A DNA stretch of 64,000 nt from Herpetosiphon geysericola (GTDB lineage: Bacteria; Chloroflexota; Chloroflexia; Chloroflexales; Herpetosiphonaceae): positions 186,001 to 250,000 of the forward strand of contig NZ_LGKP01000025.1 in assembly GCF_001306135.1 (NCBI RefSeq), in the 5' to 3' direction. Shown piece after piece: positions 42,373 through 55,440 of the stretch. How positions within the stretch are numbered: the stretch's first letter is position 1; each line of letters opens with the position of its first letter. The position numbers were made by a program, and so were the translations under genes. Below the pieces are notes generated by a model, which saw nothing but the letters and a program-made list of their open reading frames with translations, did no database searches and had not been told where the DNA came from.

Positions 42373-44001
42373 GTGGCAATACGATTGCTAAGCCAGCCAA
42401 CAGTTTCAGTTAACGGTTGGATTGGAGTAGGCTTATTTAGCGTGGGTCTGATTGGCTTATTGGGCTTGACCTTGGCAGCAATTCGCCGTTGGAGCAAGCC
42501 GCGCCAAGCTACTGATGATCATTTAAGCACCATTGGCCGCAATGCCAGCATTCCCTTTGCCCTGCAACTGACCAGTCGCATGCTCGATTTGGTCTTTGCG
42601 ATGATTCTGTATCGCTTTTTGGCGATTGAAACCGTGGGAGCCTACGACTTTGCGGCGGTGATCGTCGTAAGTTATTTTGGCACGATTGCCGATTGGGGCT
42701 TAACTGTCCTCGCAACCCACGAGATCGTGCGCCAACCAAGCCAAGCCCCCCAAACCTTTCGCACCACCCTTTGGCTACGCTTGCGCTTTGCAGTTCTAGC
42801 GCTGCCCATCGCCGTCGTTTTTGTGCTGATTTATAACGGCTTAGCAGAAGCCAAAATCACAGCGGTTGGCCTGACACGCGAACAAATGACGGTTGTGGCA
42901 ATTTTGATGCTGACCTTGTTTCCAGCAGCAATTTCGGCCAGCGTCACTGCTTGGCTACAAGGCCACGAGCGCTTGGTCGCTGCGGCGGTCGTTAATTTGC
43001 TGACCAATATTGGTAGCGCTGCTTTTCGCTTAATTGGCTTGGTTTTGGGTTTTGGCATTATTGGGATTGCCAGTGGAGCCTTGGCTGGAGCGATGCTCAG
43101 CGCCCTGTTATTTTGGCTGGCGATGCGCCGTTTCTTTCCTGATGTGGCTTGGCGTGGCCCAACCTTACCAGCCAAACCGCTGCTCAAAGAAGGCTATCCG
43201 CTGTTGCTCAACAGTTTGTTGATGACGATCTTTTTTCGTTTTGATACGATTTTGTTGAGTGCCTTTCATGGGTTTGTCGTTACGGCAACCTATGGCGTGG
43301 CCTACAAACTGATTAATTTTACTCAAATTGTGCCGCCAATCGTGGTCAATGCAATTTTTCCCACCTTAATTCGGCGTTCTGGCGATGATCGAGCTGGTAT
43401 GAGCCGCGCCTATGCTGGCACCTTGCGCATGTTACTTAATTTGGCTTTTGGCATTGCCATCATTGCAACAATTGTGGCCGTGCCGCTCACCACATGGCTC
43501 GCCGATAAACCTGAATATTTGCCAGGTAGCGTCTATGCCTTGATGATTACGATTTGGTATTTGCCATGCAGCTATCTGAATGGTCTGACGCAGTATGTCA
43601 TCATTGCCTTGGGTAAGAAGCAAGCAATTACCAAGGCCTTTGGCTTGACCGCAGTGGTCAATTTGGGCTTGAATATCTGGCTCATTCCACGTTATAGCTA
43701 TTTTGCTGCTGCCACAATCACCATTATTTCTGAGCTGGTGTTGTTTGTGCCGCTGTGGTTGGTATTGCGCCGCGAGAAAATTAGGCTTAATTTGGCTGGG
43801 CTGCTGTGGCGGCCTGCGCTTTCGGCCCTCATGGCAGGTGGAGTTGGCTGGTTATTGCTAGCAATCAATGTCTATTTAGCTGGCTTGGTAACCGGATTAA
43901 TCTATGCTGCTGGCTTATGGTTTAGTGGCAGCATTGGCCAAACCGAACGCGAGCTAGCAGCGCGTATGCTCAAAAAATTACGCCCCCAAGCATCAAATTA
44001 A
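42373..44001 (+). CDS. Oligosaccharide flippase (Wzx/PST family)
   Basis: 542 residues with about fourteen helices after a short N-terminal membrane segment (WIGVGLFSVGLIGLLGLTL). SIPFALQLTSRMLDLVFAM, VIVVSYFGTIADWGLTVLAT and GYPLLLNSLLMTIFFRFDTIL are the start and mid repeats of polysaccharide transport flippases. It moves undecaprenyl-linked oligosaccharides across the membrane. The GTG at 42373 with AGGGAG upstream was preferred to a TTG six bases earlier. It follows queE by 21 bases but is functionally unrelated; the flippase at 3271 is a different family. Confidence 0.87.
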   Translation: MAIRLLSQPTVSVNGWIGVGLFSVGLIGLLGLTLAAIRRWSKPRQATDDHLSTIGRNASIPFALQLTSRMLDLVFAMILYRFLAIETVGAYDFAAVIVVSYFGTIADWGLTVLATHEIVRQPSQAPQTFRTTLWLRLRFAVLALPIAVVFVLIYNGLAEAKITAVGLTREQMTVVAILMLTLFPAAISASVTAWLQGHERLVAAAVVNLLTNIGSAAFRLIGLVLGFGIIGIASGALAGAMLSALLFWLAMRRFFPDVAWRGPTLPAKPLLKEGYPLLLNSLLMTIFFRFDTILLSAFHGFVVTATYGVAYKLINFTQIVPPIVVNAIFPTLIRRSGDDRAGMSRAYAGTLRMLLNLAFGIAIIATIVAVPLTTWLADKPEYLPGSVYALMITIWYLPCSYLNGLTQYVIIALGKKQAITKAFGLTAVVNLGLNIWLIPRYSYFAAATITIISELVLFVPLWLVLRREKIRLNLAGLLWRPALSALMAGGVGWLLLAINVYLAGLVTGLIYAAGLWFSGSIGQTERELAARMLKKLRPQASN

Positions 44002-44151
44002 TCCACAGAACAACTATTAGGGAGCAGGTAGGTGGAACCGCGAAGGCAGGGAGTACTTATATATTGAGGAAACAGAGAAAGCTCAAACACTCCACAATGT
44101 GAGATTTAGGGAGTGCAGGGTGGTGATAACGCATTACGGTATTTATCAGGC

Positions 44152-45522
44152 CTACAACGGCAACATTCGTTTGCGCATTGCCCGCCGCCGATCAATATTC
44201 CACGCCAAGCCAAGCCCAACCAAGACAATCAGTCCAATGCCAACAATTTTTAGCCGCAGATTGAGCGATTTGAGCAATTCCTCTGCTTGGCTGCGGCCAT
44301 TACTATCGCCAAGTTGGCTAAATAAATTGGCAGCTTGCTCAATATTCTTGCGGGCGGCAACAATCCGAATGCCGTTCAAATCGCGGCGGGCGGTTTCGAG
44401 CAACTGTTGTGCTTTTAAGCCTTGTTCGGCGCGTTGCAAATAATCGTTGAGCACTTTTTGGCGCTCAATTTGGGCCAAATCGGCAAACAACGGCAAGGCT
44501 TGCTCAATTGAAGTTTTGGCTTCTGCATAGCGGCCTTCCAACAGCGCTACTCGCGCGGCGGCAGCTGCATCTTCAGCTTGCACACCTTTGCGCGCCTGTT
44601 CGCGCAAGGCCGCAATCGCTGGATCATCCTTGATTGTCAGGGCAGTTTCGGCGGCAGCCAAGGCTTCGCTATATTGGCCAGCGGCGATTGCCGTTTCTAT
44701 GCTTGCTTGATCAAAGGCCACACTGGGAGCCTGTTTCCAGCCACCATCAATCCAGGTTGGCAATTGGGCCATCCATTCGCTTTCGAGGCTTTCGGCACTG
44801 AGGCTATAGGCTTGGCTAAGCGCTGAACGATAGCCACTGGCTGTGCGCAAGGCCTCTAAGAAAGCCAAAAATCGCGCCATGCCATAGCGCTGAATCAAAA
44901 ACGAAACCATCGACCAACTTTGCGGATAGCCCAAGGCCGGATTATCGTAGACCGCACCAGCACTATCTAAAGTTCGCCATGGCGCTAGTTGGTTATTTTC
45001 AAGTGCTTGCTTGAGCAAGGCAATTTTGTAGCCACTTTGGCTGGTCGGCACTTCTACATACTGAGCGATGCCCTCTTGCCACATGGTGCTTAAACGGCCA
45101 TCAGAAAGCTCAGCAGCAATAATATGCATCAATTCATGGCGCACATTGTTGCGCAATTCCTCATCGCTCATGCCAATGGTTTGTTGGACTGCAATGCTAA
45201 TTTCGCGCCGCCCAGTGTGGGCATGAGCCACAATGCCTTCAAGGTAGCGCGCCGCCGGATTAACCTGTTGATAGAGTTCTTTGGTGGGGTAGATTCGTAA
45301 GGTCAGTGGTGGCGCAGGCCGATAGCCAATCACCGCCGTCACTTCCTCGTAAATTGGGTCGCTATAGCCAGCGTAGCGTTCGGCCTCGGCTTCGCTACCT
45401 TGAGGATACAAAATTGAAATATAGCTGGTTTTGCGTTCAAGCCATTGAGGAGGGTCGGTTTGGGCAAACGCAGGCCGTGGCCAAACCAGCAGGATTAAGA
45501 GTAAACACAACAATCGGCGCAT
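44152..45522 (-). CDS. Secreted MA-family metallopeptidase-like protein with membrane anchor
   Basis: 456 residues. Signal peptide (LLCLLLILLVWPRPAFAQ), then a peptidase fold with the zinc motif NNVRHELMHIIAAEL (HExxH) at about 127-141 and the third ligand Glu in STMWQEGIAQYVEVP. From about residue 270 there is a helical, TPR-like stalk (EALAAAETALTIKDDPAIAALRE and similar), and a C-terminal membrane helix (VGIGLIVLVGLGLAWNI) followed by a basic tail. It probably hydrolyses peptides outside the membrane. Two downstream small membrane proteins on the same strand begin about 70 bases beyond its upstream end. Confidence 0.8.
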   Translation of the reverse strand: MRRLLCLLLILLVWPRPAFAQTDPPQWLERKTSYISILYPQGSEAEAERYAGYSDPIYEEVTAVIGYRPAPPLTLRIYPTKELYQQVNPAARYLEGIVAHAHTGRREISIAVQQTIGMSDEELRNNVRHELMHIIAAELSDGRLSTMWQEGIAQYVEVPTSQSGYKIALLKQALENNQLAPWRTLDSAGAVYDNPALGYPQSWSMVSFLIQRYGMARFLAFLEALRTASGYRSALSQAYSLSAESLESEWMAQLPTWIDGGWKQAPSVAFDQASIETAIAAGQYSEALAAAETALTIKDDPAIAALREQARKGVQAEDAAAAARVALLEGRYAEAKTSIEQALPLFADLAQIERQKVLNDYLQRAEQGLKAQQLLETARRDLNGIRIVAARKNIEQAANLFSQLGDSNGRSQAEELLKSLNLRLKIVGIGLIVLVGLGLAWNIDRRRAMRKRMLPL

Positions 45523-45594
45523 CGGTAGATCCCTTTCCTATGCGCCAATTGTACCATGGCTCAACTTAGCGTTACCACGAACCGCTTGAATCGA

Positions 45595-45951
45595 TTATGG
45601 ACTATCACTTGAAAATGGTTCAAGCTCAAAAAAATCTGGATCAATCGGATTATGCAAGACGTTTGGTAGACGAACTGCTGGATCTTGATAGGTGTTGTAG
45701 CGCCAACCTGATTTTTTGCGTGGAATTGTTGGATCGTGCGCGCGCCGCGGCTGTAAGCGAGCTTGCAATGAGCGCGGGCGAAAAAAGATGATCCAGAGCA
45801 CATAACTCGACAAGAGCAATGCTGGAACCGTCACAATTGTCAAAAGCAGATTCAGCGCCGTCAAGGGCAAGATTAATTGCAGCATAACCAAACTTAATGA
45901 GCCAAGCCACACGATTACGGTTGGTTTATGCGGAGCAAGTTTTTGCAACAT
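45595..45951 (-). CDS. Small membrane protein, last of a four-gene cluster
   Basis: 118 residues; not recognised. Two adjacent hydrophobic stretches (VIVWLGSLSLVMLQLILPLT and LLLTIVTVPALLLSSYVLWII) form two helices at about 12-30 and 35-58; the rest is a soluble tail with a basic patch (RPRSLQARLQPRRAHDP) and an acidic end (LEPFSSDSP). The ATG at 45951 has AAAGGA upstream and lies 14 bases after the stop of the preceding gene. No conserved active site is seen. Operon membership is the main evidence it is real. Confidence 0.65.
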   Translation of the reverse strand: MLQKLAPHKPTVIVWLGSLSLVMLQLILPLTALNLLLTIVTVPALLLSSYVLWIIFFRPRSLQARLQPRRAHDPTIPRKKSGWRYNTYQDPAVRLPNVLHNPIDPDFFELEPFSSDSP

Positions 45952-45965
45952 CACAATCAATCCTT

Positions 45966-46409
45966 TTACCATGAACCGCTTGAATCGCCGCTGTAGCTAT
46001 CTGAGCTAGATGAACTGCTGCTCGAATCGCTCGACCATGAGCCGCCCGAATCGCCGCTCGATGAGCCGCTATCAAAGCTCGCAGAACTGCCCGAATCGTT
46101 ATTCGCCCATGAGCCGCTATCAAAGCTTGAGCTACTGTCGTTCGACCAACCAGAATTATGGTTCGAATCCAGCGACTGGCCGATATACATTCCAGTTGCC
46201 ACATCAACGCCTGGATGTGAATGATCAGAATGATGGTGATTGTGATGCCGAAACGCTGGATTATTGTAATGTTGATGGCGGCGTTGTCCATTTGAGCGAT
46301 ATTGTGAAGTATCGCCTTTTACGATCTTGATAATGGTCGATAGCATAGCCAAAATCGCAAACCCAATGATGAATATGGGGATAAACGTGCCCATAGCTGA
46401 AAGATGCAT
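45966..46409 (-). CDS. Single-helix membrane protein with Ser/Asp-rich tail
   Basis: 147 residues from the ATG at 46409 (AAGGGAGAAG upstream). The N-terminal helix is GTFIPIFIIGFAILAMLSTII, followed by a His/Asn-rich stretch (HNHHHSDHSHPG) and a very Ser/Asp/Gly-rich tail ending SYSGDSSGSW. The neighbour at 46433 ends with an almost identical GSWSSDSSSSS...GDSSGSW, so the tails are shared. Similar Gly/Ser tails ending in SW occur in TPM-type membrane proteins, but no such domain is visible here. Surface exposure is likely; function unknown. Confidence 0.7.
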   Translation of the reverse strand: MHLSAMGTFIPIFIIGFAILAMLSTIIKIVKGDTSQYRSNGQRRHQHYNNPAFRHHNHHHSDHSHPGVDVATGMYIGQSLDSNHNSGWSNDSSSSFDSGSWANNDSGSSASFDSGSSSGDSGGSWSSDSSSSSSSSDSYSGDSSGSW

Positions 46410-46432
46410 AACTTCTCCCTTACTAGCTTGTT

Positions 46433-46747
46433 TTACCACGAGCCGCTTGAATCACCGCTGCTGCTATCGGATGAACTGCTCGAATCGCTTGACCACGAGC
46501 CACCAGAATCGCCGCTATAACTATCGGAACTCCAGGTTGAATCGCTGCTGGAGCTAGAACCCCAATAACTATCGGAATCGTTGCTAGCGCCATAGATATA
46601 GCCAGTGCTGCCGTAGCTCGTGCCATGCGAATTGGTCTGATTGGGCAGGCCATAACGCTTTTTGATTGCAACGAAAAACAAGAAGCCGATGAATAATAGA
46701 GGAATACAGCAGCAAAATCCTCCATCAAGTTGAAACGAAAAATTCAT
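46433..46747 (-). CDS. Small membrane protein with Cys-rich head and Ser/Asp tail
   Basis: 104 residues from an ATG with GAGGAG upstream. The start MNFSFQLDGGFCCCIPLLFI has three adjacent Cys at the membrane border, then a helix to about 30, a Tyr/Ser-rich part (GYIYGASNDSDSYWGSSSSS) and the tail GDSGGSWSSDSSSSS...GDSSGSW. The tail mirrors that of the gene at 45966. The Cys trio may bind metal, form disulfides or be acylated; this is a guess. Confidence 0.7.
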   Translation of the reverse strand: MNFSFQLDGGFCCCIPLLFIGFLFFVAIKKRYGLPNQTNSHGTSYGSTGYIYGASNDSDSYWGSSSSSDSTWSSDSYSGDSGGSWSSDSSSSSDSSSGDSSGSW

Positions 46748-46790
46748 AGCGTGCTCCTCTCACGAAGCTTTAAACATCATTGGCTAGGTT

Positions 46791-47078
46791 CTAATCGTCG
46801 TCATCGTCATCGTAATCATCATCGTGATCGTGGCGACGGCCATAGTAGTGCTTTTTCTTATATTTTGGCCGATAGTGGTTGTAATCGTGGGATTGATAAT
46901 AGTGATCGTTTGAGCGATAGGAATGCTTCGAGCCTTTGAAGCGGTAGGCAAATTGGTTATATAAGCCTTTGAGATTGCGTGTGGGTAAGAATTTTTTGGC
47001 AACCAAGGCCACGATTACCAAGCCGACGATCAGCACAACGGCACAAAGTACCAATCCAAGTAGCAGAACTTTGATCAT
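46791..47078 (-). CDS. Small membrane protein with Tyr/His-rich and poly-Asp tail
   Basis: 95 residues, first of the four-gene cluster. One helix (VLLLGLVLCAVVLIVGLVIVALVA) is followed by NLKGLYNQFAYRFKGSKHSY, a Tyr/His/Arg-rich run (YYQSHDYNHYRPKYKKKHYY) and a poly-acidic end (HDHDDDYDDDDDD). The tail is strongly charged in blocks. AAGGAG precedes the ATG. The acidic Asp/His end could bind cations. No known family. Confidence 0.7.
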   Translation of the reverse strand: MIKVLLLGLVLCAVVLIVGLVIVALVAKKFLPTRNLKGLYNQFAYRFKGSKHSYRSNDHYYQSHDYNHYRPKYKKKHYYGRRHDHDDDYDDDDDD

Positions 47079-47176
47079 GTCACACTCCTTTGTTGGTGTG
47101 GCTCTCGTGGTTCTGTACGCTGGTTTGGCCTAAACGTTACAAACAGCTTGGGCTAGCTACGTTGAAGGCTTGAGGA

Positions 47177-47287
47177 TGCGGCAATGACCAATTCAATTAA
47201 TTAGCCATTGCCAATGCGAAAGTGCCGCAACTCTTTCTCTATCAACTCTTGCGGCAATGACCAATTCAATTAATTAGCCATTGCCAA
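47177..47287 (+). repeat. Two 38-bp direct repeats with hairpin potential
   Basis: Identical 38-base units at 47177-47214 and 47250-47287 (73-base period). Each has GGCAATG and CATTGCC arms around an AATTCAATTAATTA core. They lie between the small-membrane cluster and the downstream end of the ArgS-like gene. Confidence 0.85.
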
Positions 47288-47298
47288 CTAAGGGGAAC

Positions 47299-49029
47299 TT
47301 ACATCCGTTCAGGAGCGGCAATCGAGAGCAAGCCCAAACCATTGCGCAAGGCTTGCGCAGTGGCGGCAACCAATTGGCCACGGGCAGCACGCAACGCCAA
47401 GGTTTCGGCCTTCAAAACCGGGCAAGCATCATAGAAAATTGCAAAGGCTTTGGCGGTAGCATACAGCCAATCGGCTACCACAGACGGCGCATAACGGTCA
47501 GCAGCATCAACAATCACTTGCGGCAAGCGCGCTAGCTCTTTCAACAAGGCTTGCTCGGCAGGGTGGGTTAGCTCGCGGCCATTGTAATTTTGCGGCAAGC
47601 GCCCGAAATCGCGTAAAATCGAGCAGCAGCGGGCATGCATATATTGAATGTAGGCGGCGCTATTGCCATCAAAGGCTAACATGCGATCCCAATCGACGAC
47701 CACATCGTGGGCAGGGTCGTGCTGCAAGTTGTGATAGATGACCGCGCCAACCCCAACTTGTTCAGCAACCTCGTTGAGCCATTCGCTGGTAAAGGCGGTT
47801 TTGGCTTCGATAGCTTTTTGTTTGAGTAAGGTTTTGGCCCGCGCACACGCTTCATCCAACAATGGCTCCAAGTAGATCGTGGTGCTAAAGCGTGGGTGAG
47901 GATTCGCCCGCCCCTCCGGCCCTAAAATCATGCCGCAGGCTACGTGGGCCAAATCGGCTTTGGTGTAGCCCAAGGTTTTGCTGATGGTAAAGGCTTGGCG
48001 AAAATGCAATTCTTGAGCTTGCTTAACCACATAAATAATTTTACTTGGTTGGTAGAGCGCTTCGCGATATTTAATTGCCGCAATATCGCGGGTAATGTAG
48101 AGCGTGCTGCCATCGGAGCGATTGAGCAACAAGGTTGGCAAAGCCTTGCCCTGTTCATCGAGCAAATCTTTGACGATTGCCACATGGCTATCGAGCTGGG
48201 CAATTTGGTAGTGCAAGGCTTCTTTGATCACAACTTGGGCTTCGCGCGCATAGAAACTTTCGCAATGTTGCACATCAAAGGCCACACCCAAGCGCCGATA
48301 ATTGGCTTGGTTGGCGTTTAAACTCAAATCGACCAATTGTTGCAATAAGCTAATTGCTTGAGGATCGCCGCTGGCCAGTTTGCTTGCCCAGGCTTGGGCC
48401 AAATCGTGCACTTGATCATCTGCTTGATATTGCTGAGCTTGTTGCTCCAACGAGGCCAACATGCTTTCGCCATTGCCATTGCGATGCTGAAAATGCTGCA
48501 TTGCGGCCAGCGAAATGCCCAATTGGGGATCATAATCGCCCCAGTGGTTCATACGAATCACTTGGTAGCCAAGCGAACGATAGATATTAACAATCGCTTG
48601 GCCGATCATGGTCGAACGCACATGGTCGACGCGCATGCGTTTGGCAATGTTGGGCGATGAATAATCAACTACCACTGCTTGTTGCTGGCCGCGATTGCTA
48701 CGGCCATAGCCAGCTTTACCTTGGCTAATATCGTGCAAGACCGATTGGGCAAAGGTTATTGGGTTGAGCGAAAAGTTGACATACGCGCCCAAGGCCGTGG
48801 CTTTTAGGACGAGGCTCTCGTGGCTAAATTTAAGCGCATTTGCTAGGGTCTGAGCAAATTGGGCTGGATTACTTCCGCGTATTTTGGCAGCCCGAAAACA
48901 TGGCAAGGCAAGGTCAGCCTGCACGCCCGTGGCTTTGGGAGCGACTAAATCGATCAAATCGGCAGTTATTAACGTGGTGTCAAGCAATGCATCACGAATG
49001 GCTTGCTCAAAACGAGCAAAAGTGTCCAT
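47299..49029 (-). CDS. Degenerate arginyl-tRNA synthetase paralogue (HIGH and KMSKS lost)
   Basis: 576 residues from the ATG at 49029 (GGAG upstream). It aligns along its length with the canonical argS at 50454 and ends in the same LLSIAAPERM. The class I HIGH motif, HVGH in the other copy, is RVDH here (residues 133-136), and the KMSKS-equivalent STRKGN is replaced by PHPRFST. The Rossmann, anticodon-binding and tRNA-core parts look intact (e.g. VGVGAVIYHNLQHDP, VDWDRMLAFDGNSAAYIQY). Without these motifs arginine activation is doubtful, but the reading frame is free of stops, which argues for a retained, non-canonical role. Confidence 0.85.
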   Translation of the reverse strand: MDTFARFEQAIRDALLDTTLITADLIDLVAPKATGVQADLALPCFRAAKIRGSNPAQFAQTLANALKFSHESLVLKATALGAYVNFSLNPITFAQSVLHDISQGKAGYGRSNRGQQQAVVVDYSSPNIAKRMRVDHVRSTMIGQAIVNIYRSLGYQVIRMNHWGDYDPQLGISLAAMQHFQHRNGNGESMLASLEQQAQQYQADDQVHDLAQAWASKLASGDPQAISLLQQLVDLSLNANQANYRRLGVAFDVQHCESFYAREAQVVIKEALHYQIAQLDSHVAIVKDLLDEQGKALPTLLLNRSDGSTLYITRDIAAIKYREALYQPSKIIYVVKQAQELHFRQAFTISKTLGYTKADLAHVACGMILGPEGRANPHPRFSTTIYLEPLLDEACARAKTLLKQKAIEAKTAFTSEWLNEVAEQVGVGAVIYHNLQHDPAHDVVVDWDRMLAFDGNSAAYIQYMHARCCSILRDFGRLPQNYNGRELTHPAEQALLKELARLPQVIVDAADRYAPSVVADWLYATAKAFAIFYDACPVLKAETLALRAARGQLVAATAQALRNGLGLLSIAAPERM

Positions 49030-49429
49030 CTCAGGCTCCAAATCAGACTAGCAAATGTTGGTCGTATCGACGTTATATCCTAACATAATGTCAGCAATTC
49101 GTAAGTCCTAAATTGGTCGGGCGCAAGACGGATTTATAGAAGGATGAAGGATGAATTATGAAGGATGAAGAACATAGAACATAAAGCATAGAACATAACC
49201 AGGCTCAATCTCTAGTAAAAAAACTTAACCTTCGTGCTCTTTGTGTCCTTCGTAGATCAATTTGTAACGCAGAGGCGCAGAGTTTTTTAACCACGAAGCG
49301 CACGAAGAGCGAGTAACGTTGAACTTGAGCAATTTTCCCCAAGCACAATAGCCAATAGCCAACGCCAAAAGCCAAGAGCTTCAGCCTTCGTGATCTTCGC
49401 GTTTCCAATTCTTCGTGGTTTTAACCGAT
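49030..49429. repeat. Intergenic repeat patch between ArgS-like gene and methyltransferase
   Basis: No gene. An AGGATGAAGGATGAATTATG word lies at 49141, AACATAGAACATAAAGCATAG at 49170, CTTCGTGCTC/CTTCGTAG words near 49230, the first 49-bp direct repeat at 49279-49327, and CTTCGTGATCTTCGCG at 49387. The CACGAAG words occur here on both strands. Confidence 0.75.
49279..49327 (+). repeat. 49-bp direct repeat, copy 1
   Basis: The 49 bases from AGAGTTTTTTAACCACGAAG to GTAACGTTGAACTTG recur exactly at 50313-50361. The two copies bracket the methyltransferase gene. The repeat contains the CCACGAAGCGCACGAAG word. Confidence 0.85.
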
Positions 49430-50221
49430 TTAGCGAATGCCAATGCAAACTTGGTAGCTGAAATACCAGGCAATTGGCTGTGGGCCAATCAGATCGTGGG
49501 CCGCTTGTTTAAGCCGATCAAAGCCAAGCTCTTGCTCGGTTAGAGTGCCATTTTTGAGATGATAGTGATAGCCGCTGCTCAGAATTAGGTCGATAAAGCG
49601 TTGCGCATCGCCATATTCGCAATGATGCAGCGTTAGTTCTAGTGTATGTTGAAAAAGGCCACTTGCCTGCATCCGTTGTCGATGCTGCTTATCCCAGCCT
49701 GGATGGTCTGCTGGGGTGGCGCGACGTTCAATTAGTTGTTCAAAACGCTGAGCGACCTGCTGAAAAATCTGATCGAGTTCCCAATGAATCGTTGGCGGCC
49801 AATGATAGTCGTAGGCAGCAAACACGCCGCCGGGTCGCAAAATACGGGCAATTTCTGCCAGCGTTGAGTTTGGTTCCATCCAATGTAGGGCTTGAGCACA
49901 AGTCACAATATCGGCACTACTCGAATCCAAACTTGTTTGATGGCCAAATCCAGCCCGATAGCTGATGCAGGAATCGGCTGCTAGCTTGCTGATAGCCACG
50001 TTGCGCATATCAGCACTCGGCTCGATCCCAATCACCCGCTCAGCACGTTCAGCCCAGATTGTGGTTGAGCGACCAGTTCCACAGCCCAAATCCACGACCA
50101 ATGCAGGTTTTGGCGTATGGCTGAGCTGTGTCAAAAGATCGACAAGGACAGAGGGTGCTGTTGGGCGAGCTTGATCATAACGGCTCGCTTCATCAACCCA
50201 GACTACGCTCGAATCAGTCAT
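49430..50221 (-). CDS. SAM-dependent class I methyltransferase
   Basis: 263 residues. Motif I is LVVDLGCGTGRSTTIWAE, with GIEPSADMRNVA for the acidic ribose contact, TCAQALHWMEP and LRPGGVFAAYDYHWP following. This is the UbiE/Methyltransf_11 type acting on small molecules; the substrate is unknown. The second half (about 150-263) is a variable helical substrate domain. GAGGG precedes the ATG. It lies between the two argS genes, flanked by 49-bp direct repeats, and may have been inserted there. Confidence 0.9.
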   Translation of the reverse strand: MTDSSVVWVDEASRYDQARPTAPSVLVDLLTQLSHTPKPALVVDLGCGTGRSTTIWAERAERVIGIEPSADMRNVAISKLAADSCISYRAGFGHQTSLDSSSADIVTCAQALHWMEPNSTLAEIARILRPGGVFAAYDYHWPPTIHWELDQIFQQVAQRFEQLIERRATPADHPGWDKQHRQRMQASGLFQHTLELTLHHCEYGDAQRFIDLILSSGYHYHLKNGTLTEQELGFDRLKQAAHDLIGPQPIAWYFSYQVCIGIR

Positions 50222-50312
50222 TGAAAGCCCTCTTTGAACATTGATCCACGAAGCGCGATTGGCTTTGGTCTATTCGCTAAGTTCCCATTGCATCAGGCCC
50301 GATTTTTAAAGT

Positions 50313-50361
50313 AGAGTTTTTTAACCACGAAGCGCACGAAGAGCGAGTAACGTTGAACTTG
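50313..50361 (+). repeat. 49-bp direct repeat, copy 2
   Basis: Exact copy of 49279-49327. Its CCACGAAGCGCACGAAG (50325-50341) is also the reverse complement of 50431-50447, giving a 17-bp inverted repeat downstream of the canonical argS. Confidence 0.85.
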
Positions 50362-50453
50362 GGCTATTTCACCCAATCTCCGATAGCCTCACACCTTCGC
50401 GTTCTTCGCGGTTTCAATTCTTCGTGTCCTTCGTGCGCTTCGTGGATCGGTTT

Positions 50454-52229
50454 TTACATCCGTTCGGGAGCGGCGATTGAGAGCAAGCTTAGGCCGTTGC
50501 GTAAGGCTTGGGCCGTTGCTGCTACCAAATGGCCGCGCGCAACCCGCAATTCTGGCGTTTCGGCTTTGAGCACCGAACATGCATCGTAGAAAGCCGAGAA
50601 AGCGCGAGCAGTGGCGTAGAGCCAATCGGCGACCACGAATGGGGCATAGCGTGCAGCCGCTTCTTCAATAATTTGCGGCAAACGGGCCAACTCTTTGAGC
50701 AAACCTGTTTCAGCAGGGTGGCTCAGCAAGCTGCCATCGTAACTGGCGGGCAATTCGCCAAAATCGCGCAAAATCGAGCAGCAGCGGGCATGCATATATT
50801 GCAAATAGGGCGAACTATTGCCCTCAAAAGCCAACATCCGATCCCAATCGACGGTGATATTGCGCTTGGTATCTTGGTACAAATCGTTGTACATCACCGC
50901 GCCAACGCCAACTTGCTCGGCAACATGATCGATCAAATCGGCGGTAAGTTGGGTTTTACCTTCGCTCATTTTTTGCTCAATCAGCGCTTTGGCCCGATTG
51001 CGCGCTTCATCAAGCAAGGTTTCGAGGTAAATCATATTGCCCTTGCGGGTGGAAAGTGGCTGGCCCTGCGCATCAAACACCGTGCCAAACGAAATATGAA
51101 TTAATTCGGCATCGGTATAGCCCAAGGCTTTGCTAATGGCAAAAGTTTGGCGAAAATGCAATTCTTGGGGCTGGCCAACAATATAAATCATTGCATCGGG
51201 ATTATAGGTTTGCTCACGATATTTGATTGTGGCAATGTCGCGGGTAATGTAGAGCGTGCCACCATCTGAACGCTGAATCAAAAAGGTTGGTAATTTTTTG
51301 CCGCGATGATCGGGCAAATCTTTGACAATAATTGCTTTGCCATCACGCTCAGCAAGCTCACTCTCGCCTGCATCGCTGATGATTTCTCCTAGCATATCTT
51401 TGTAAAAGCTTTCGCCATGTTGCACATCGAAGTGCACGCCCAAGCGATCATAATTGGGCTGATTGGCGGTTTTGGTTAGATCAACCATCCATTGCCATAG
51501 CTCAAGCGCTTGAGGATCGCCTTGTTCCAATTTGAGCGACCAAGCGCGGGCTTCATCGTCTAAATCAACCTCAGCATCGGGATCGAAATCAGCATCATCG
51601 GGATTTGCACCCTTCATCAACAAGTTGTAGCGTTTGTATTGCTCTTCGATTGCGGCCAAAACGGCTTCGCCTTCGCCTTCGGGCTTGCCAAAACGAATCG
51701 TTGCGGCAATATTAACCCCGAATTGCTTGCCGTAATCGCCCAAGTGATTATCGCGAATCACTTCGTAGCCAAGCCGTTGATAGAGATTGGCAATTGCTTG
51801 GCCGATGATAGTTGAGCGAATATGGCCAACGTGCATACGCTTGGCAATGTTGGGCGATGAATATTCGACAATCACTTTGCGTTGATTGCCTTTGCTGCTG
51901 CTGCCATAGGTTGTGCCGCCAGCCTGAACATCGGCCAAGACTGCTTTGGCAAAAGCTTGGGGGTTGAGATTGAAATTAACATATGGGCCAGAAACCGTTG
52001 CGCTAGCCACCAAACTATCGGGAGCAAATTGCAGCGCGGCGACTAATTCTTGGGCAACTTGAGCCGGATTGCTGCCGCGACTTTTAGCAGCCCGAAAACA
52101 TGGCAAGGCTAAATCGGCCTGCACGCCAGCAGCTTTGGGAGCGCCTAAATCAATATCGGCGGCGTTAATTAAATTGGTGGCAAGCAAGGCCTCGCGAATG
52201 GCTTGCTCGAAGCGAGCAAAGGTATACAT
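50454..52229 (-). CDS. argS: Arginyl-tRNA synthetase (canonical copy)
   Basis: 591 residues. The HIGH motif is HVGH in KRMHVGHIRSTIIGQAIA (133-136), and the KMSKS loop equivalent is STRKGN in GQPLSTRKGNMIYLE. RDNHLGDYGKQFG, TLYITRDIATIKYRE and the DALR-type anticodon domain (AYLQYMHARCCSILRDFG) follow. It attaches arginine to tRNA-Arg using ATP. GGAG is 8-9 bases before the ATG; TATACT at 52263-52268 may be the -10. It is on the same strand as, and homologous to, the degenerate copy at 47299, so the latter is presumably the derived duplicate. Confidence 0.96.
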   Translation of the reverse strand: MYTFARFEQAIREALLATNLINAADIDLGAPKAAGVQADLALPCFRAAKSRGSNPAQVAQELVAALQFAPDSLVASATVSGPYVNFNLNPQAFAKAVLADVQAGGTTYGSSSKGNQRKVIVEYSSPNIAKRMHVGHIRSTIIGQAIANLYQRLGYEVIRDNHLGDYGKQFGVNIAATIRFGKPEGEGEAVLAAIEEQYKRYNLLMKGANPDDADFDPDAEVDLDDEARAWSLKLEQGDPQALELWQWMVDLTKTANQPNYDRLGVHFDVQHGESFYKDMLGEIISDAGESELAERDGKAIIVKDLPDHRGKKLPTFLIQRSDGGTLYITRDIATIKYREQTYNPDAMIYIVGQPQELHFRQTFAISKALGYTDAELIHISFGTVFDAQGQPLSTRKGNMIYLETLLDEARNRAKALIEQKMSEGKTQLTADLIDHVAEQVGVGAVMYNDLYQDTKRNITVDWDRMLAFEGNSSPYLQYMHARCCSILRDFGELPASYDGSLLSHPAETGLLKELARLPQIIEEAAARYAPFVVADWLYATARAFSAFYDACSVLKAETPELRVARGHLVAATAQALRNGLSLLSIAAPERM

Positions 52230-52294
52230 TTTTAAAACTCCAATTGGTTAATTGCTAGCGGCAGTATAGCCGAAAAGACCTATTTTAGCCGATC

Positions 52295-52323
52295 AAAAAG
52301 CACCCATCGGCGTCGATGAGTGC
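52295..52323 (-). terminator. Terminator after the dienelactone hydrolase gene
   Basis: On the minus strand GCACTCATCG, loop ACGC, CGATGGGTGC and then TTTTT: a ten-pair stem with one mismatch followed by a U-tract. It lies about 30 bases beyond the upstream gene's stop and separates it from argS. Confidence 0.8.
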
Positions 52324-52352
52324 GCGCAGAAAAAGCTGCTGGATGCTATCGA

Positions 52353-53327
52353 CTAGACCAAATATTGCTTAAACCAAGCCAGCGTTTCAGCCCACGCTGC
52401 TTGGGCAGCCTCTGCATTATACCGCTGACCAGTATCATTATGAAAAGCGTGATTCACCCCAGGATAGATTTCTTTGCGATAGACTTTATTATTTTGCTGC
52501 ATTGCTGCTTCAACATCAGCCACAGTGCTGGTAATGCGATCATCATCCTCGGCGTAAATCGCCAAGACTGGCGCATTGATTTTGGGAATTTCGCTGCTTG
52601 GAACTGGCGGGCCGTAGAATGGCACGGCAGCTTTTAATTCGGGCATGCCTGCTGCGACCAACCAGGTAACCCCGCCACCAAAGCAAAAACCAACCATGCC
52701 AACTTTGCTCGTATCAGCAAACGACTGGGTTTTGAGATAGTCGACACCAGCCTTAAAATCGGCCACATGGCGCTCTGGTGGCGCGCCGCTCAGCAAACCA
52801 GGCACGCTGTCGGCATCAGTAATGCTGGCCGTGCCACCTTCACGCGAAAGCAAATCGACTGCCAAGCCAACATAACCAGCCTTGGCGACGCGCCGCGCTA
52901 CATCTTGAATATGCAGCGTAAGCCCACGGTTTTCGTGGCAAACCAACACGACCGGAAACGGGCCAGCACCAACAGGCTGGGCCAAATAAGCCATTAATTG
53001 GCTATCGCCGCCAGCAAACTCGACCATTGCTGCTTTGACTGCTGGATCGTTTTCGGCAACGCTGTTGGGCACGCTTCCAGCGGCGCTGGCAGTGGTTGGG
53101 GTGGCTTCAAGCGCGGCTGCGGTGGTTGCGGTTGGGGCAGTGGTGGGGTTGGGCGCACTCGTCGCAGTTGCAGGCGTGGCGGGATCACCACAGGCAGCCA
53201 ATAATTGGGTTGCGACCACCAGCCCTGTAATGCCTGCGATCTTTTTCAAGGCCTGTCGCCGCGTCAGTAATCCTTCCTGATAATCTTCGACGAACTCATC
53301 AACCAAATACTGTTGTAAATGATTCAT
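52353..53327 (-). CDS. Dienelactone hydrolase-family lipoprotein
   Basis: 324 residues. The N-terminal part has a twin-arginine-like LTRRQALKKIAG and a lipobox (LLAAC, Cys46), so it is exported folded or partly folded and lipidated. A Thr/Ala/Pro spacer (about 50-85) leads to the alpha/beta-hydrolase: VVLVCHENRGLTLHIQD (Glu), GMVGFCFGGGVTWLVA (nucleophile Cys), YAEDDDRI (Asp) and PGVNHAFHND (His), the Cys-Asp-His triad of dienelactone hydrolases. The substrate outside the membrane is unknown. GAGGATG precedes the ATG. A terminator ends the transcript. Confidence 0.9.
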   Translation of the reverse strand: MNHLQQYLVDEFVEDYQEGLLTRRQALKKIAGITGLVVATQLLAACGDPATPATATSAPNPTTAPTATTAAALEATPTTASAAGSVPNSVAENDPAVKAAMVEFAGGDSQLMAYLAQPVGAGPFPVVLVCHENRGLTLHIQDVARRVAKAGYVGLAVDLLSREGGTASITDADSVPGLLSGAPPERHVADFKAGVDYLKTQSFADTSKVGMVGFCFGGGVTWLVAAGMPELKAAVPFYGPPVPSSEIPKINAPVLAIYAEDDDRITSTVADVEAAMQQNNKVYRKEIYPGVNHAFHNDTGQRYNAEAAQAAWAETLAWFKQYLV

Positions 53328-53454
53328 CGGGCATCCTCATACACTAAATGCTTGCCATATCTCAGTCTACGCTTGTTTTGGCCCCAACGGATGGCTCCAA
53401 AGATGAGGGTTTATTAATTTCATTTACTATTTTAAGCGTATGAGCGATGTGATT

Positions 53455-53483
53455 AAAGCAAAAGCTCCTCGGCTAGCGAGGAG
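53455..53483 (-). terminator. Terminator after the GSP17M-type gene
   Basis: Minus-strand CTCCTCG, short loop, CGAGGAG then CTTTTGCTTTAAT. Seven-pair stem with a T-rich tail about 35 bases past the stop at 53520. Confidence 0.7.
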
Positions 53484-53519
53484 ACGAAGAGCAGATGCCT
53501 GATTGGTATCAGCGCTTGA

Positions 53520-53999
53520 TTAAATTTGGAAGGTGTTGACAAGCTCGATATTGCGTTCGCGTAGCAATGTTTCGACTTCGCCTGCTTGGTCGGCATTATC
53601 GTTATCAATTGCCAAAATCGTTTCGCCATCCTTGAGAGCTTGCTCATACGAAGCGGCTAAATCGTTGCCAAGGCCAATTTGGCTGAACGCGCCAAGCACA
53701 CCGCCAGCTGCTGCGCCAGCAACGGTCGAACCAAGAATCCCTGCGCCTAAGGCCGGCCCGATGCCAGGAATTGCGAATGACATTAAGCCAGCTACAACCC
53801 CCACAACGCTACCAGCAGTTACACCAGCAGCCGCTCCTGCAGCTACATCAGTGCGATCTTTTTCGGCTTCGACGGTTTGTTCCGAGGCATACAACACCCC
53901 AATATCATCGGGCTTAACTTGGGATTGTTGTAATTGGGCCATCAGACCATCAAGCGCGGTGCGATCTGTCAAAATACCCATAACGCGATAGCGGGCCAT
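53520..53999 (-). CDS. General stress protein 17M-like protein with glycine-zipper
   Basis: 159 residues. ARYRVMGILTDRTALDGLMAQLQ and the closing DNADQAGEVETLLRERN frame a Gly/Ala-rich hydrophobic middle (GAAAGVTAGSVVGVVAGLMS, GPALGAGILGSTVAGAAAGG), as in YflT/GSP17M-type proteins. The Gly/Ala middle probably inserts in or packs against the membrane. It is linked to stress in Bacillus; the role here is inferred. AAGGAGAT precedes the ATG and its own terminator follows. Confidence 0.72.
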   Translation of the reverse strand: MARYRVMGILTDRTALDGLMAQLQQSQVKPDDIGVLYASEQTVEAEKDRTDVAAGAAAGVTAGSVVGVVAGLMSFAIPGIGPALGAGILGSTVAGAAAGGVLGAFSQIGLGNDLAASYEQALKDGETILAIDNDNADQAGEVETLLRERNIELVNTFQI

Positions 54000-54093
54000 G
54001 ATTCAATCTCCTTGTAGTAAAAGCTACGTTCGTTGTTGGCAAGGGCTATGCCATGGCTCAAATGAGCCTGCTTAAATTTGTTATCATGGGAGT

Positions 54094-55440
54094 ATGAAAC
54101 GTTGTTTATGCGCATGCTGGCTGCTTGTATTGCTTGCCAGCCAACCACAATCGGCTCAGGCTCACGCTCTTGATCAGCTTTTTCAAGATATGCGGGTGCA
54201 GGTTCAGCCAACCCAACTTGTGCTGACTGTTCACTTAATCGCTGGCCCATTAATTACGCCCCGCTTGTGGGAACAGCTCGATGCTGATAACTCGCACACG
54301 CTTGAGCAAGCAGAAATTGAGCGCTGGTGTACTGAATTTAATCGCAATTTGAAGCTGGGTTTTGATCAACAAACACTGCCATTAAGCCTTTACGAAATAA
54401 GCGAATTTCCGATTAATAAAGCCGATTTTATTGGCTCGAATGCAACAAATCTAACTTGGACAGCGCAGGCACCGCTTGGCTCAATCGCTCCAGGCGCACA
54501 TCAACTCAGCCTCAAATCTAACAATTACCACGATATTAGCGTGGTCGATTGGAGCAAAACGCGGGGTCGAGCTGGAATTGTGGCCCAAGAAGCTAGCAGC
54601 ATGGATTTGCATAGCGCGCAGTTTCCCATTAAATGGCCGAGCGCTTTTCGTAGCGATGGCGCAATTGCCTTGCCAAGCGCCGAACCAGCAGCCGTCCAAA
54701 CCCAACCAAGCTCAAGCCTTGTGGCGCGTTTGCAAACTGGTGATAACTCGTTTGGCTTAATCGCGGCGACGCTTGGGCTAGCCTTTGGCTTTGGGGCGGC
54801 CCATGCCTTGCAACCAGGCCATGGCAAAACCTTGGTTGCCGCCTATTTGGTCGGCAGTCGCGGCACGATTCGCCAAGCAACAATGCTTGGGGCCATCGTT
54901 ACCTTAACCCATACTGCCAGCGTTTTTGCGCTAGGTGGCTTGATGTTGCTGTTTAGTGCCTGGGTCACCCCGGAACGCTTTGTGCCAATCTTAACCTTGA
55001 TCTCTGGGATTTTAGTGGCTGGTTTGGGCATGCGAATGCTCTGGGAGCGGCTGCAAGCCCTGCGTTCTGGCAACCAAGGCCATTCCCATGGCGGGCTTTT
55101 TCATAGCCATGCAGATGGCGCAGCAGGCCATAGCCATGTGAGCAACCGCAAATTGTTGGGTTTGGGCATTTCGGGCGGTTTGGTGCCCTGCCCCGAAGCC
55201 TTGGTAATTATGATTGTGGCGGCAACGCTTGGCCGCATTGGCCTTGGCTTTGCCATGATTATTTCGTTTAGCGCAGGCTTGGCAGCAGTATTAATTGGGA
55301 TTGGGATTGTATTAGTGACGCTTGGCTCACGGCTGATCAAGCTGAGCCAGCCAGAAGCGCGTTGGGTGCGTTGGCTGCCAATTGTTAGCGCTGGCGTCGT
55401 GACATTGCTTGGGATTGGGCTTATGCTGCAAACATTCTAA
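54094..55440 (+). CDS. NicO/RcnA-like nickel-cobalt exporter with EF-hand-like domain
   Basis: 448 residues. Signal peptide (about 1-23), an extracytoplasmic domain of ~200 residues with an EF-hand-like LDADNSHTLEQAE near residue 69, then six membrane helices. The first helix pair has FGFGAAHALQPGHGKTLVAAY, the HAxxPGHGK motif of NicO/RcnA exporters. A cytoplasmic loop is His-rich (HSHGGLFHSHADGAAGHSH) and could buffer Ni or Co. The last helices follow GISGGLVPCPEALVIMI. GGGAG precedes the ATG. Probably exports Ni2+/Co2+. Confidence 0.85.
   Translation: MKRCLCACWLLVLLASQPQSAQAHALDQLFQDMRVQVQPTQLVLTVHLIAGPLITPRLWEQLDADNSHTLEQAEIERWCTEFNRNLKLGFDQQTLPLSLYEISEFPINKADFIGSNATNLTWTAQAPLGSIAPGAHQLSLKSNNYHDISVVDWSKTRGRAGIVAQEASSMDLHSAQFPIKWPSAFRSDGAIALPSAEPAAVQTQPSSSLVARLQTGDNSFGLIAATLGLAFGFGAAHALQPGHGKTLVAAYLVGSRGTIRQATMLGAIVTLTHTASVFALGGLMLLFSAWVTPERFVPILTLISGILVAGLGMRMLWERLQALRSGNQGHSHGGLFHSHADGAAGHSHVSNRKLLGLGISGGLVPCPEALVIMIVAATLGRIGLGFAMIISFSAGLAAVLIGIGIVLVTLGSRLIKLSQPEARWVRWLPIVSAGVVTLLGIGLMLQTF

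What the first reader, a model, noticed from the sequence alone, without database searches (positions are those of the whole stretch)
47299..49029. ArgS paralogue that has lost both class I catalytic signatures
The gene aligns throughout with the canonical argS at 50454 and sits on the same strand a few kb away. HVGH is RVDH, and the KMSKS-equivalent STRKGN is PHPRFST, while the frame is open and the tRNA-binding and C-terminal parts are kept. A decaying pseudogene would be expected to carry stops or frameshifts. Known precedents for retained dead synthetases (HisZ, PoxA) suggest a regulatory, tRNA-binding or amino-acid-biosynthesis role.
Basis: partly seen in the sequence, partly recalled or inferred. 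Interest (0 to 1): 0.75.

Follow-up and report, generated by a model that had tools for sequence, protein, structure and literature searches.

The report
Conserved catalytically dead arginyl-tRNA synthetase copy
Every sequenced Herpetosiphon species examined keeps, besides its normal arginine-tRNA-charging enzyme, a second copy whose energy (ATP) site has been wrecked while its tRNA-binding parts and arginine pocket are preserved, which suggests that a dead enzyme was turned into a tRNA- or arginine-binding control protein.

Summary
An open 576-aa frame on the minus strand (49029-47299) is a full-length ArgS paralogue, 60-62% identical to the canonical ArgS at 52229-50454. HVGH reads RVDH and the STRKGN loop is gone. 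All six held genomes of the genus (Herpetosiphon aurantiacus, H. giganteus and H. llansteffanensis among them) have both genes; the three other genera of the family have only the canonical one. The copy is 89-99% identical between species with pairwise dN/dS of 0.02-0.09, about as low as argS itself, so it is not decaying. A tree places the duplication in the Herpetosiphon stem: one long burst of change, then constraint. The losses are targeted. Residues invariant in canonical ArgS are kept 12/12 in the tRNA D-loop domain and 41/44 in the anticodon domain, but only 79/120 in the catalytic domain (p=1.3e-5). Within that domain the ATP site is destroyed, but the five arginine-contacting positions remain. 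The best reading is a non-catalytic tRNA-Arg-binding, probably arginine-binding, regulator or partner protein, comparable with SLIMP, HisZ and DALRD3. The methyltransferase between the two genes is not an obligatory partner. Loss of arginylation and tRNA binding are inferred, not measured.

The parts
47299..49029 (-). ArgS paralogue, 576 aa (the finding); Add1 N-terminal domain, class I catalytic domain, DALR anticodon-binding domain
   Evidence: fold confirmed by AF2 model (pLDDT 87, pTM 0.88) and PDB matches to ArgRS
48622..48633 (-). RVDH (residues 133-136) in place of HVGH
   Evidence: invariant R, D and H in all six species; H and G invariant in 18 canonical ArgS
47878..47913 (-). KMSKS-equivalent loop (residues 373-384), lost and relaxed
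   Evidence: 7 of 12 positions vary between paralogues, local dN/dS about 1.3; no variation in argS; pLDDT<50 at 376-382
47302..47679 (-). DALR anticodon-binding domain (residues 451-576), including C-terminal APERM
   Evidence: 41 of 44 canonical invariants kept, the other three conservative (E->D, A->A/S, R->K)
48730..49029 (-). Add1 N-terminal D-loop-binding domain (residues 1-100), with Y83/N85 of the A20-recognising YVNF motif
   Evidence: 12 of 12 invariants kept; A20 role of the E. coli F82/N84 equivalents from PMC8975779
49030..49140 (-). conserved upstream segment, probable promoter and leader, with GGAG ribosome-binding site
   Evidence: nearly identical in six species, including two where the gene lies away from argS; single copy in the genome
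49430..50221 (-). class I SAM methyltransferase (Methyltransf_11) between the two argS copies
   Evidence: absent from the whole genome G004, which keeps the paralogue
50454..52229 (-). canonical argS, 591 aa, with HVGH and STRKGN

Best explanation
A tandem duplication of argS in the ancestor of Herpetosiphon produced a second ArgS that lost the ATP site (HIGH first His to Arg, Gly to Asp; FG to CG; GDYGKQ to GDYDPQ; KMSKS loop replaced). It kept the D-loop-binding domain, the anticodon-binding domain and the arginine-side-chain pocket. It therefore cannot make arginyl-adenylate, but it should still bind tRNA-Arg and probably free arginine. I propose that it works as a non-catalytic tRNA-Arg/arginine-binding regulator or partner subunit, in the manner of SLIMP or HisZ: the ligand state (uncharged tRNA-Arg and/or arginine) is passed on through contact with another protein, possibly the canonical ArgS. 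Shown: duplication, genus-wide retention, purifying selection, selective loss. Inferred: no arginylation, tRNA and arginine binding. Proposed only: the partner and the signalling step.
For: Both copies are present in 6/6 genus genomes, open in all. Pairwise dN/dS is 0.02-0.09, near that of argS at 0.02-0.06 (NG86). The paralogue clade is sister to Herpetosiphon argS (100/97) with stem length 0.95 versus 0.05 for argS; an outside placement gives p-AU 0.03-0.035. Canonical invariants kept: N-domain 12/12, anticodon domain 41/44, catalytic 79/120; Fisher p=1.3e-5. Changes of invariant catalytic residues include H133R, G135D, G167D, F365C and the STRKGN loop. Arginine-contact positions (yeast E148, N153, Y347, D351, Q375, placed by counting in the 1bs2 alignment) are D122, N127, Y311, D315, Q339; the E/D exchange is natural in other ArgS. 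Apart from the KMSKS loop, the catalytic domain is about as constrained as the RNA-binding domains. The conserved 110-bp leader travels with the gene. The best structural matches are arginine-bound ArgRS.
Against: No assay exists. The second His of HIGH and the Lys130 thought to compensate for a missing KMSKS lysine are kept, so some residual activity cannot be excluded. The list of arginine-contact residues is from memory of the yeast structure papers, which the library does not hold. Residues next to the pocket changed (L163W, K168P). No partner gene is linked by position in all species.
Confidence: 0.55

Rival explanations
1. Dead stabilising or modulating subunit of the canonical ArgS (heterodimer), without any arginine sensing.
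For: SLIMP, a dead SerRS paralogue, is the model: it keeps tRNA binding and works together with mitochondrial SerRS (PMC9437257). The gene pair is adjacent in G000, G002 and G005 and on abutting contig ends in G003.
Against: ArgRS is usually monomeric (general knowledge). The two genes are separated in G004 and G006. This does not explain why the arginine pocket is kept.
Confidence: 0.15
2. It still performs chemistry: either slow or conditional arginylation with an unusual ATP site, or a new reaction on arginine or Arg-tRNA that needs no ATP.
For: The catalytic domain is strongly constrained (dN/dS 0.066) and RVDH is itself fixed, as expected if the rebuilt site does something. Pocket residues, H136 and K130 are kept.
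Against: Gly to Asp in HIGH, loss of FG and loss of the KMSKS loop together should abolish adenylate formation. The former KMSKS loop evolves without constraint.
Confidence: 0.15
3. tRNA-Arg adapter for a tRNA methyltransferase, as DALRD3 is for METTL2, with the neighbouring methyltransferase as partner.
For: A SAM methyltransferase lies between the two copies in the arrangement seen in G000, G002, G005 and probably G003. DALRD3, a DALR-domain protein without catalytic motifs, directs METTL2 to tRNA-Arg (PMC7237682).
Against: G004 keeps the paralogue but has no such methyltransferase anywhere, and in G006 the two are unlinked. The enzyme is a general Methyltransf_11 type.
Confidence: 0.07
4. 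A decaying copy kept by chance.
For: The catalytic motifs are lost.
Against: Open in six species with dN/dS far below 1 at dS up to 0.9, and conserved leader.
Confidence: 0.02

Closest known systems
SLIMP (seryl-tRNA synthetase-like insect mitochondrial protein)
   Same: Paralogue of a synthetase that lacks aminoacylation, retains tRNA binding and is strictly kept (PMC9437257)
   Different: Class II SerRS, animal mitochondria; its partner SerRS is known, none is known here
HisZ
   Same: Bacterial synthetase paralogue without adenylation that responds to its amino acid for allosteric control (PMC9437257)
   Different: To my knowledge HisZ lost the anticodon-binding domain and does not depend on tRNA; here that domain is among the best kept parts. 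No enzyme partner such as HisG is identified
DALRD3
   Same: Protein with an ArgRS-type anticodon-binding domain and no catalytic motifs, binding tRNA-Arg (PMC7237682)
   Different: Vertebrate protein whose N-terminal part is unrelated to ArgRS; here all ArgRS domains are kept
NrtL (NF045898), ArgS-related anticodon-binding protein
   Same: Shares the C-terminal anticodon-binding part (69.7 bits)
   Different: Shorter (327 aa model); score far under the curated cut-off of 340; canonical ArgS scores higher
Archaeal LeuRS-I and LeuRS2
   Same: Duplicated synthetases that keep tRNA affinity and have lost or reduced aminoacylation (PMC9437257)
   Different: Different amino acid; LeuRS-I still makes the adenylate

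Membership tests
Functional arginyl-tRNA synthetase (TIGR00456 argS) | Homology over all domains above curated cut-off | tested here: met
   380 bits against cut-off 261.65, residues 9-576
Functional arginyl-tRNA synthetase (TIGR00456 argS) | HIGH signature (HxGH) | tested here: not met
   RVDH in all six species
Functional arginyl-tRNA synthetase (TIGR00456 argS) | KMSKS-equivalent loop as in relatives (STRKGN/STKKGN) | tested here: not met
   PHPRFST or SGARFST
Functional arginyl-tRNA synthetase (TIGR00456 argS) | Arginylation of tRNA-Arg | not testable with these tools
   needs protein
Non-catalytic synthetase paralogue (SLIMP/HisZ type) | Derived from a synthetase gene while a canonical copy remains | tested here: met
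Non-catalytic synthetase paralogue (SLIMP/HisZ type) | Catalytic residues lost under purifying selection | tested here: met
Non-catalytic synthetase paralogue (SLIMP/HisZ type) | tRNA- or amino-acid-binding residues kept | tested here: met
   sequence level only
Non-catalytic synthetase paralogue (SLIMP/HisZ type) | Absence of aminoacylation shown by assay | not testable with these tools
   needs protein
Non-catalytic synthetase paralogue (SLIMP/HisZ type) | Known protein partner or regulated enzyme | tested here: inconclusive
   no plausible partner gene is linked in all species
NrtL (NF045898) | Score above curated cut-off of 340 bits | tested here: not met
   69.7 bits
DALRD3-type tRNA methyltransferase adapter | Obligatory association with a methyltransferase | tested here: not met
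   neighbouring methyltransferase absent from G004; other methyltransferases not tested

The most novel reading that the evidence does not exclude
A full-length, ATP-site-dead ArgRS that uses the retained arginine pocket and tRNA-Arg-binding domains as a two-input sensor of arginine and (uncharged) tRNA-Arg, in a bacterial order where the ArgR repressor was not found in any of eight genomes searched.
Probability: 0.2. Interest if true: 0.8.

Novelty: new variant of a known kind. Interest (0 to 1): 0.52.

Why it matters
Non-catalytic synthetase paralogues are known for several amino acids, but a 2022 review of duplicated synthetases does not mention ArgRS. This one keeps all ArgRS domains and shows a clean separation: the ATP site is gone, the arginine pocket and tRNA-binding parts are kept. 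ArgRS needs tRNA to activate arginine, so a copy that can hold both but not react would be a natural sensor. The pair is conserved in cultured, sequenced species, so the idea is directly testable with purified proteins.

Tried and rejected
1) Pseudogene: rejected by open frames and dN/dS. 2) Neighbouring methyltransferase as obligatory partner: rejected, absent from G004 and unlinked in G006. 3) Horizontal acquisition of a divergent ArgS: the tree places the copy as sister to Herpetosiphon argS, and outside placements are disfavoured (p 0.03-0.035, not overwhelming). 4) T-box or other Rfam element at the locus: none found, although the genome has 8 T-box matches. 5) Replacement of a lost ArgR: ArgR was not found in any of eight genomes of the order, including those without the copy, so there is no correlation. 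6) argB number does not track the copy within the family: five TIGR00761 matches in the four Herpetosiphon genomes searched and also in G008, which lacks the copy. 7) Same motif elsewhere: a scan of about 85,000 genomes for A-K-x-M-R-V-D-H gave 66 places, of which only the Herpetosiphon ones are ArgS. 8) Another ArgS duplication in the phylum (G032) has both copies with intact motifs, so duplication alone does not give this pattern. 9) Plasmid-borne ArgS: the listed hits are all distant, at or under 34% identity. 10) Papers on an ArgRS pseudo-paralogue or NrtL: none found in the held library. 11) The simple consensus scan found no sigma-70-type promoter in the leader. 12) A first alignment mixed strands and was discarded; one search replaces it.

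Full report
Check of the observation. The window lies in a Herpetosiphon genome (G000, contig C1 186001-250000; genus named from the titles of its closest relatives). The frame 49029-47299 on the minus strand is open, 576 aa, and aligns end to end with the canonical ArgS encoded at 52229-50454 (60% identity, one 16-residue deletion). It hits the three Pfam domains of ArgS and the NCBIfam argS model. HVGH is RVDH, and the STRKGN loop is replaced by an unrelated stretch one residue longer. A methyltransferase gene between the two copies was not mentioned.

Distribution. All six genomes of the genus that are held carry both genes; one genome of each of three other genera of the family carries a single, canonical argS. 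Of 400 genomes across the phylum, only G032 shows a second full-length ArgS outside this genus, and both its copies have intact motifs. A scan of the GTDB genomes for the AKxMRVDH motif finds it in an ArgS context only in Herpetosiphon.

Age and selection. In a maximum-likelihood tree the paralogue clade is sister to Herpetosiphon argS (support 100/97), inside the family, on a branch of 0.95 changes per column against 0.05 for its sister. Long-branch attraction would tend to pull it outward, not inward; forced outside placements have p-AU 0.03-0.035. So the copy arose in the Herpetosiphon stem, changed fast, and then settled: between species it is 89-99% identical with dN/dS 0.02-0.09, close to argS itself. 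The 110 bp upstream are nearly identical in all six genomes, including G004 and G006 where the gene lies away from argS, while the sequence further upstream is unalike. The gene and its leader are therefore a unit under selection.

What was lost and what was kept. Of residues invariant in 18 canonical ArgS of the order, the copy keeps 12 of 12 in the N-terminal D-loop-binding domain, 41 of 44 in the anticodon-binding domain (the other three are E->D, A->A/S and R->K), but 79 of 120 in the catalytic domain (Fisher p=1.3e-5). The catalytic losses include H133R and G135D of HIGH, G167D next to the conserved GDY, F365C of the FG before the loop, and the loop itself. The loop drifts between the two paralogue subclades (7 of 12 positions, local dN/dS about 1.3), whereas RVDH is fixed. 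The positions that contact arginine in yeast ArgRS (E148, N153, Y347, D351, Q375; list from memory, positions counted in the 1bs2 alignment) correspond to D122, N127, Y311, D315 and Q339. All are retained or, for 122, show the natural E/D exchange. Y83 and N85, the equivalents of E. coli F82 and N84 that contact A20 of tRNA-Arg (PMC8975779), are retained. Outside the loop the catalytic domain is about as constrained as the RNA-binding domains, which argues against a protein in which only the anticodon domain matters.

Fold. An AlphaFold model from the window and locus proteins is confident (mean pLDDT 87, pTM 0.88), lowest in the former KMSKS loop. Its best structural matches are ArgRS, first the arginine-bound E. 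coli and Neisseria enzymes (Z 38, rmsd 3.0 over 550-558 residues). A shared fold shows no function.

Surroundings. The order argS - methyltransferase - paralogue is seen in G000, G002 and G005 and is compatible with contig ends in G003. In G006 the methyltransferase stays beside argS and the copy is elsewhere; in G004 the methyltransferase is missing from the genome. The idea of a DALRD3-like adapter for this methyltransferase (PMC7237682) is therefore unlikely. No Rfam element lies at the locus. ArgR was not found in any of eight genomes of the order searched.

Interpretation. The pattern fits a synthetase turned into a binding protein: unable to form the adenylate, still able to hold tRNA-Arg and probably arginine. 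SLIMP (dead SerRS paralogue, keeps tRNA binding) and HisZ (no adenylation, amino-acid-dependent regulation) are the closest working models (PMC9437257). Whether it senses arginine, uncharged tRNA or both, whether it acts on ArgS or on another protein, and whether some chemistry remains, cannot be told from sequence. The 2022 review of synthetase duplications never uses the name ArgRS in its main text, and no paper on such a protein was found, with the limit that only open-licence papers were searched.

Step status. Shown: duplication, retention, selection, selective loss, fold prediction. Follows from knowledge of class I synthetases: no adenylate formation. Inferred: tRNA and arginine binding. 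Proposed: regulation through a partner.

Noticed in passing
49030-49140 (-): The conserved leader of the paralogue contains two short inverted repeats (ACATTATGT and GTCG-ATA-CGAC) that could be operator sites; the segment is single copy in the genome.
   Followed up: partly
45598-46747 (-): Three small consecutive genes without Pfam matches; at least the two at 45966-46747 encode Ser/Gly-rich proteins ending in SGDSSGSW. Relatives lie downstream of the paralogue in G003, G004, G005 and G006, also where the upstream side was rearranged.
   Followed up: partly
47177-47214 and 47250-47287: Two identical 38-nt direct repeats, each with a GGCAATG...CATTGCC inverted repeat, just downstream of the paralogue's stop codon; no other copy of the 399-bp region was found in the genome.
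   Followed up: partly
49430-50221 (-): The intervening methyltransferase evolves faster than its neighbours (73-95% identity) and is missing from G004, so it looks like a dispensable gene caught between the two argS copies.
   Followed up: yes
G032 C84:1629-3332 and C144:7285-8985 (L147, L148): Another Chloroflexota genome with two ArgS genes, both with intact motifs, one with STRR and one with STKK in the loop.
   Followed up: partly
genome G000, 8 places: Eight T-box riboswitch matches (two over the gathering score) in this Herpetosiphon genome, none in the 44000-54500 stretch around argS.
   Followed up: no
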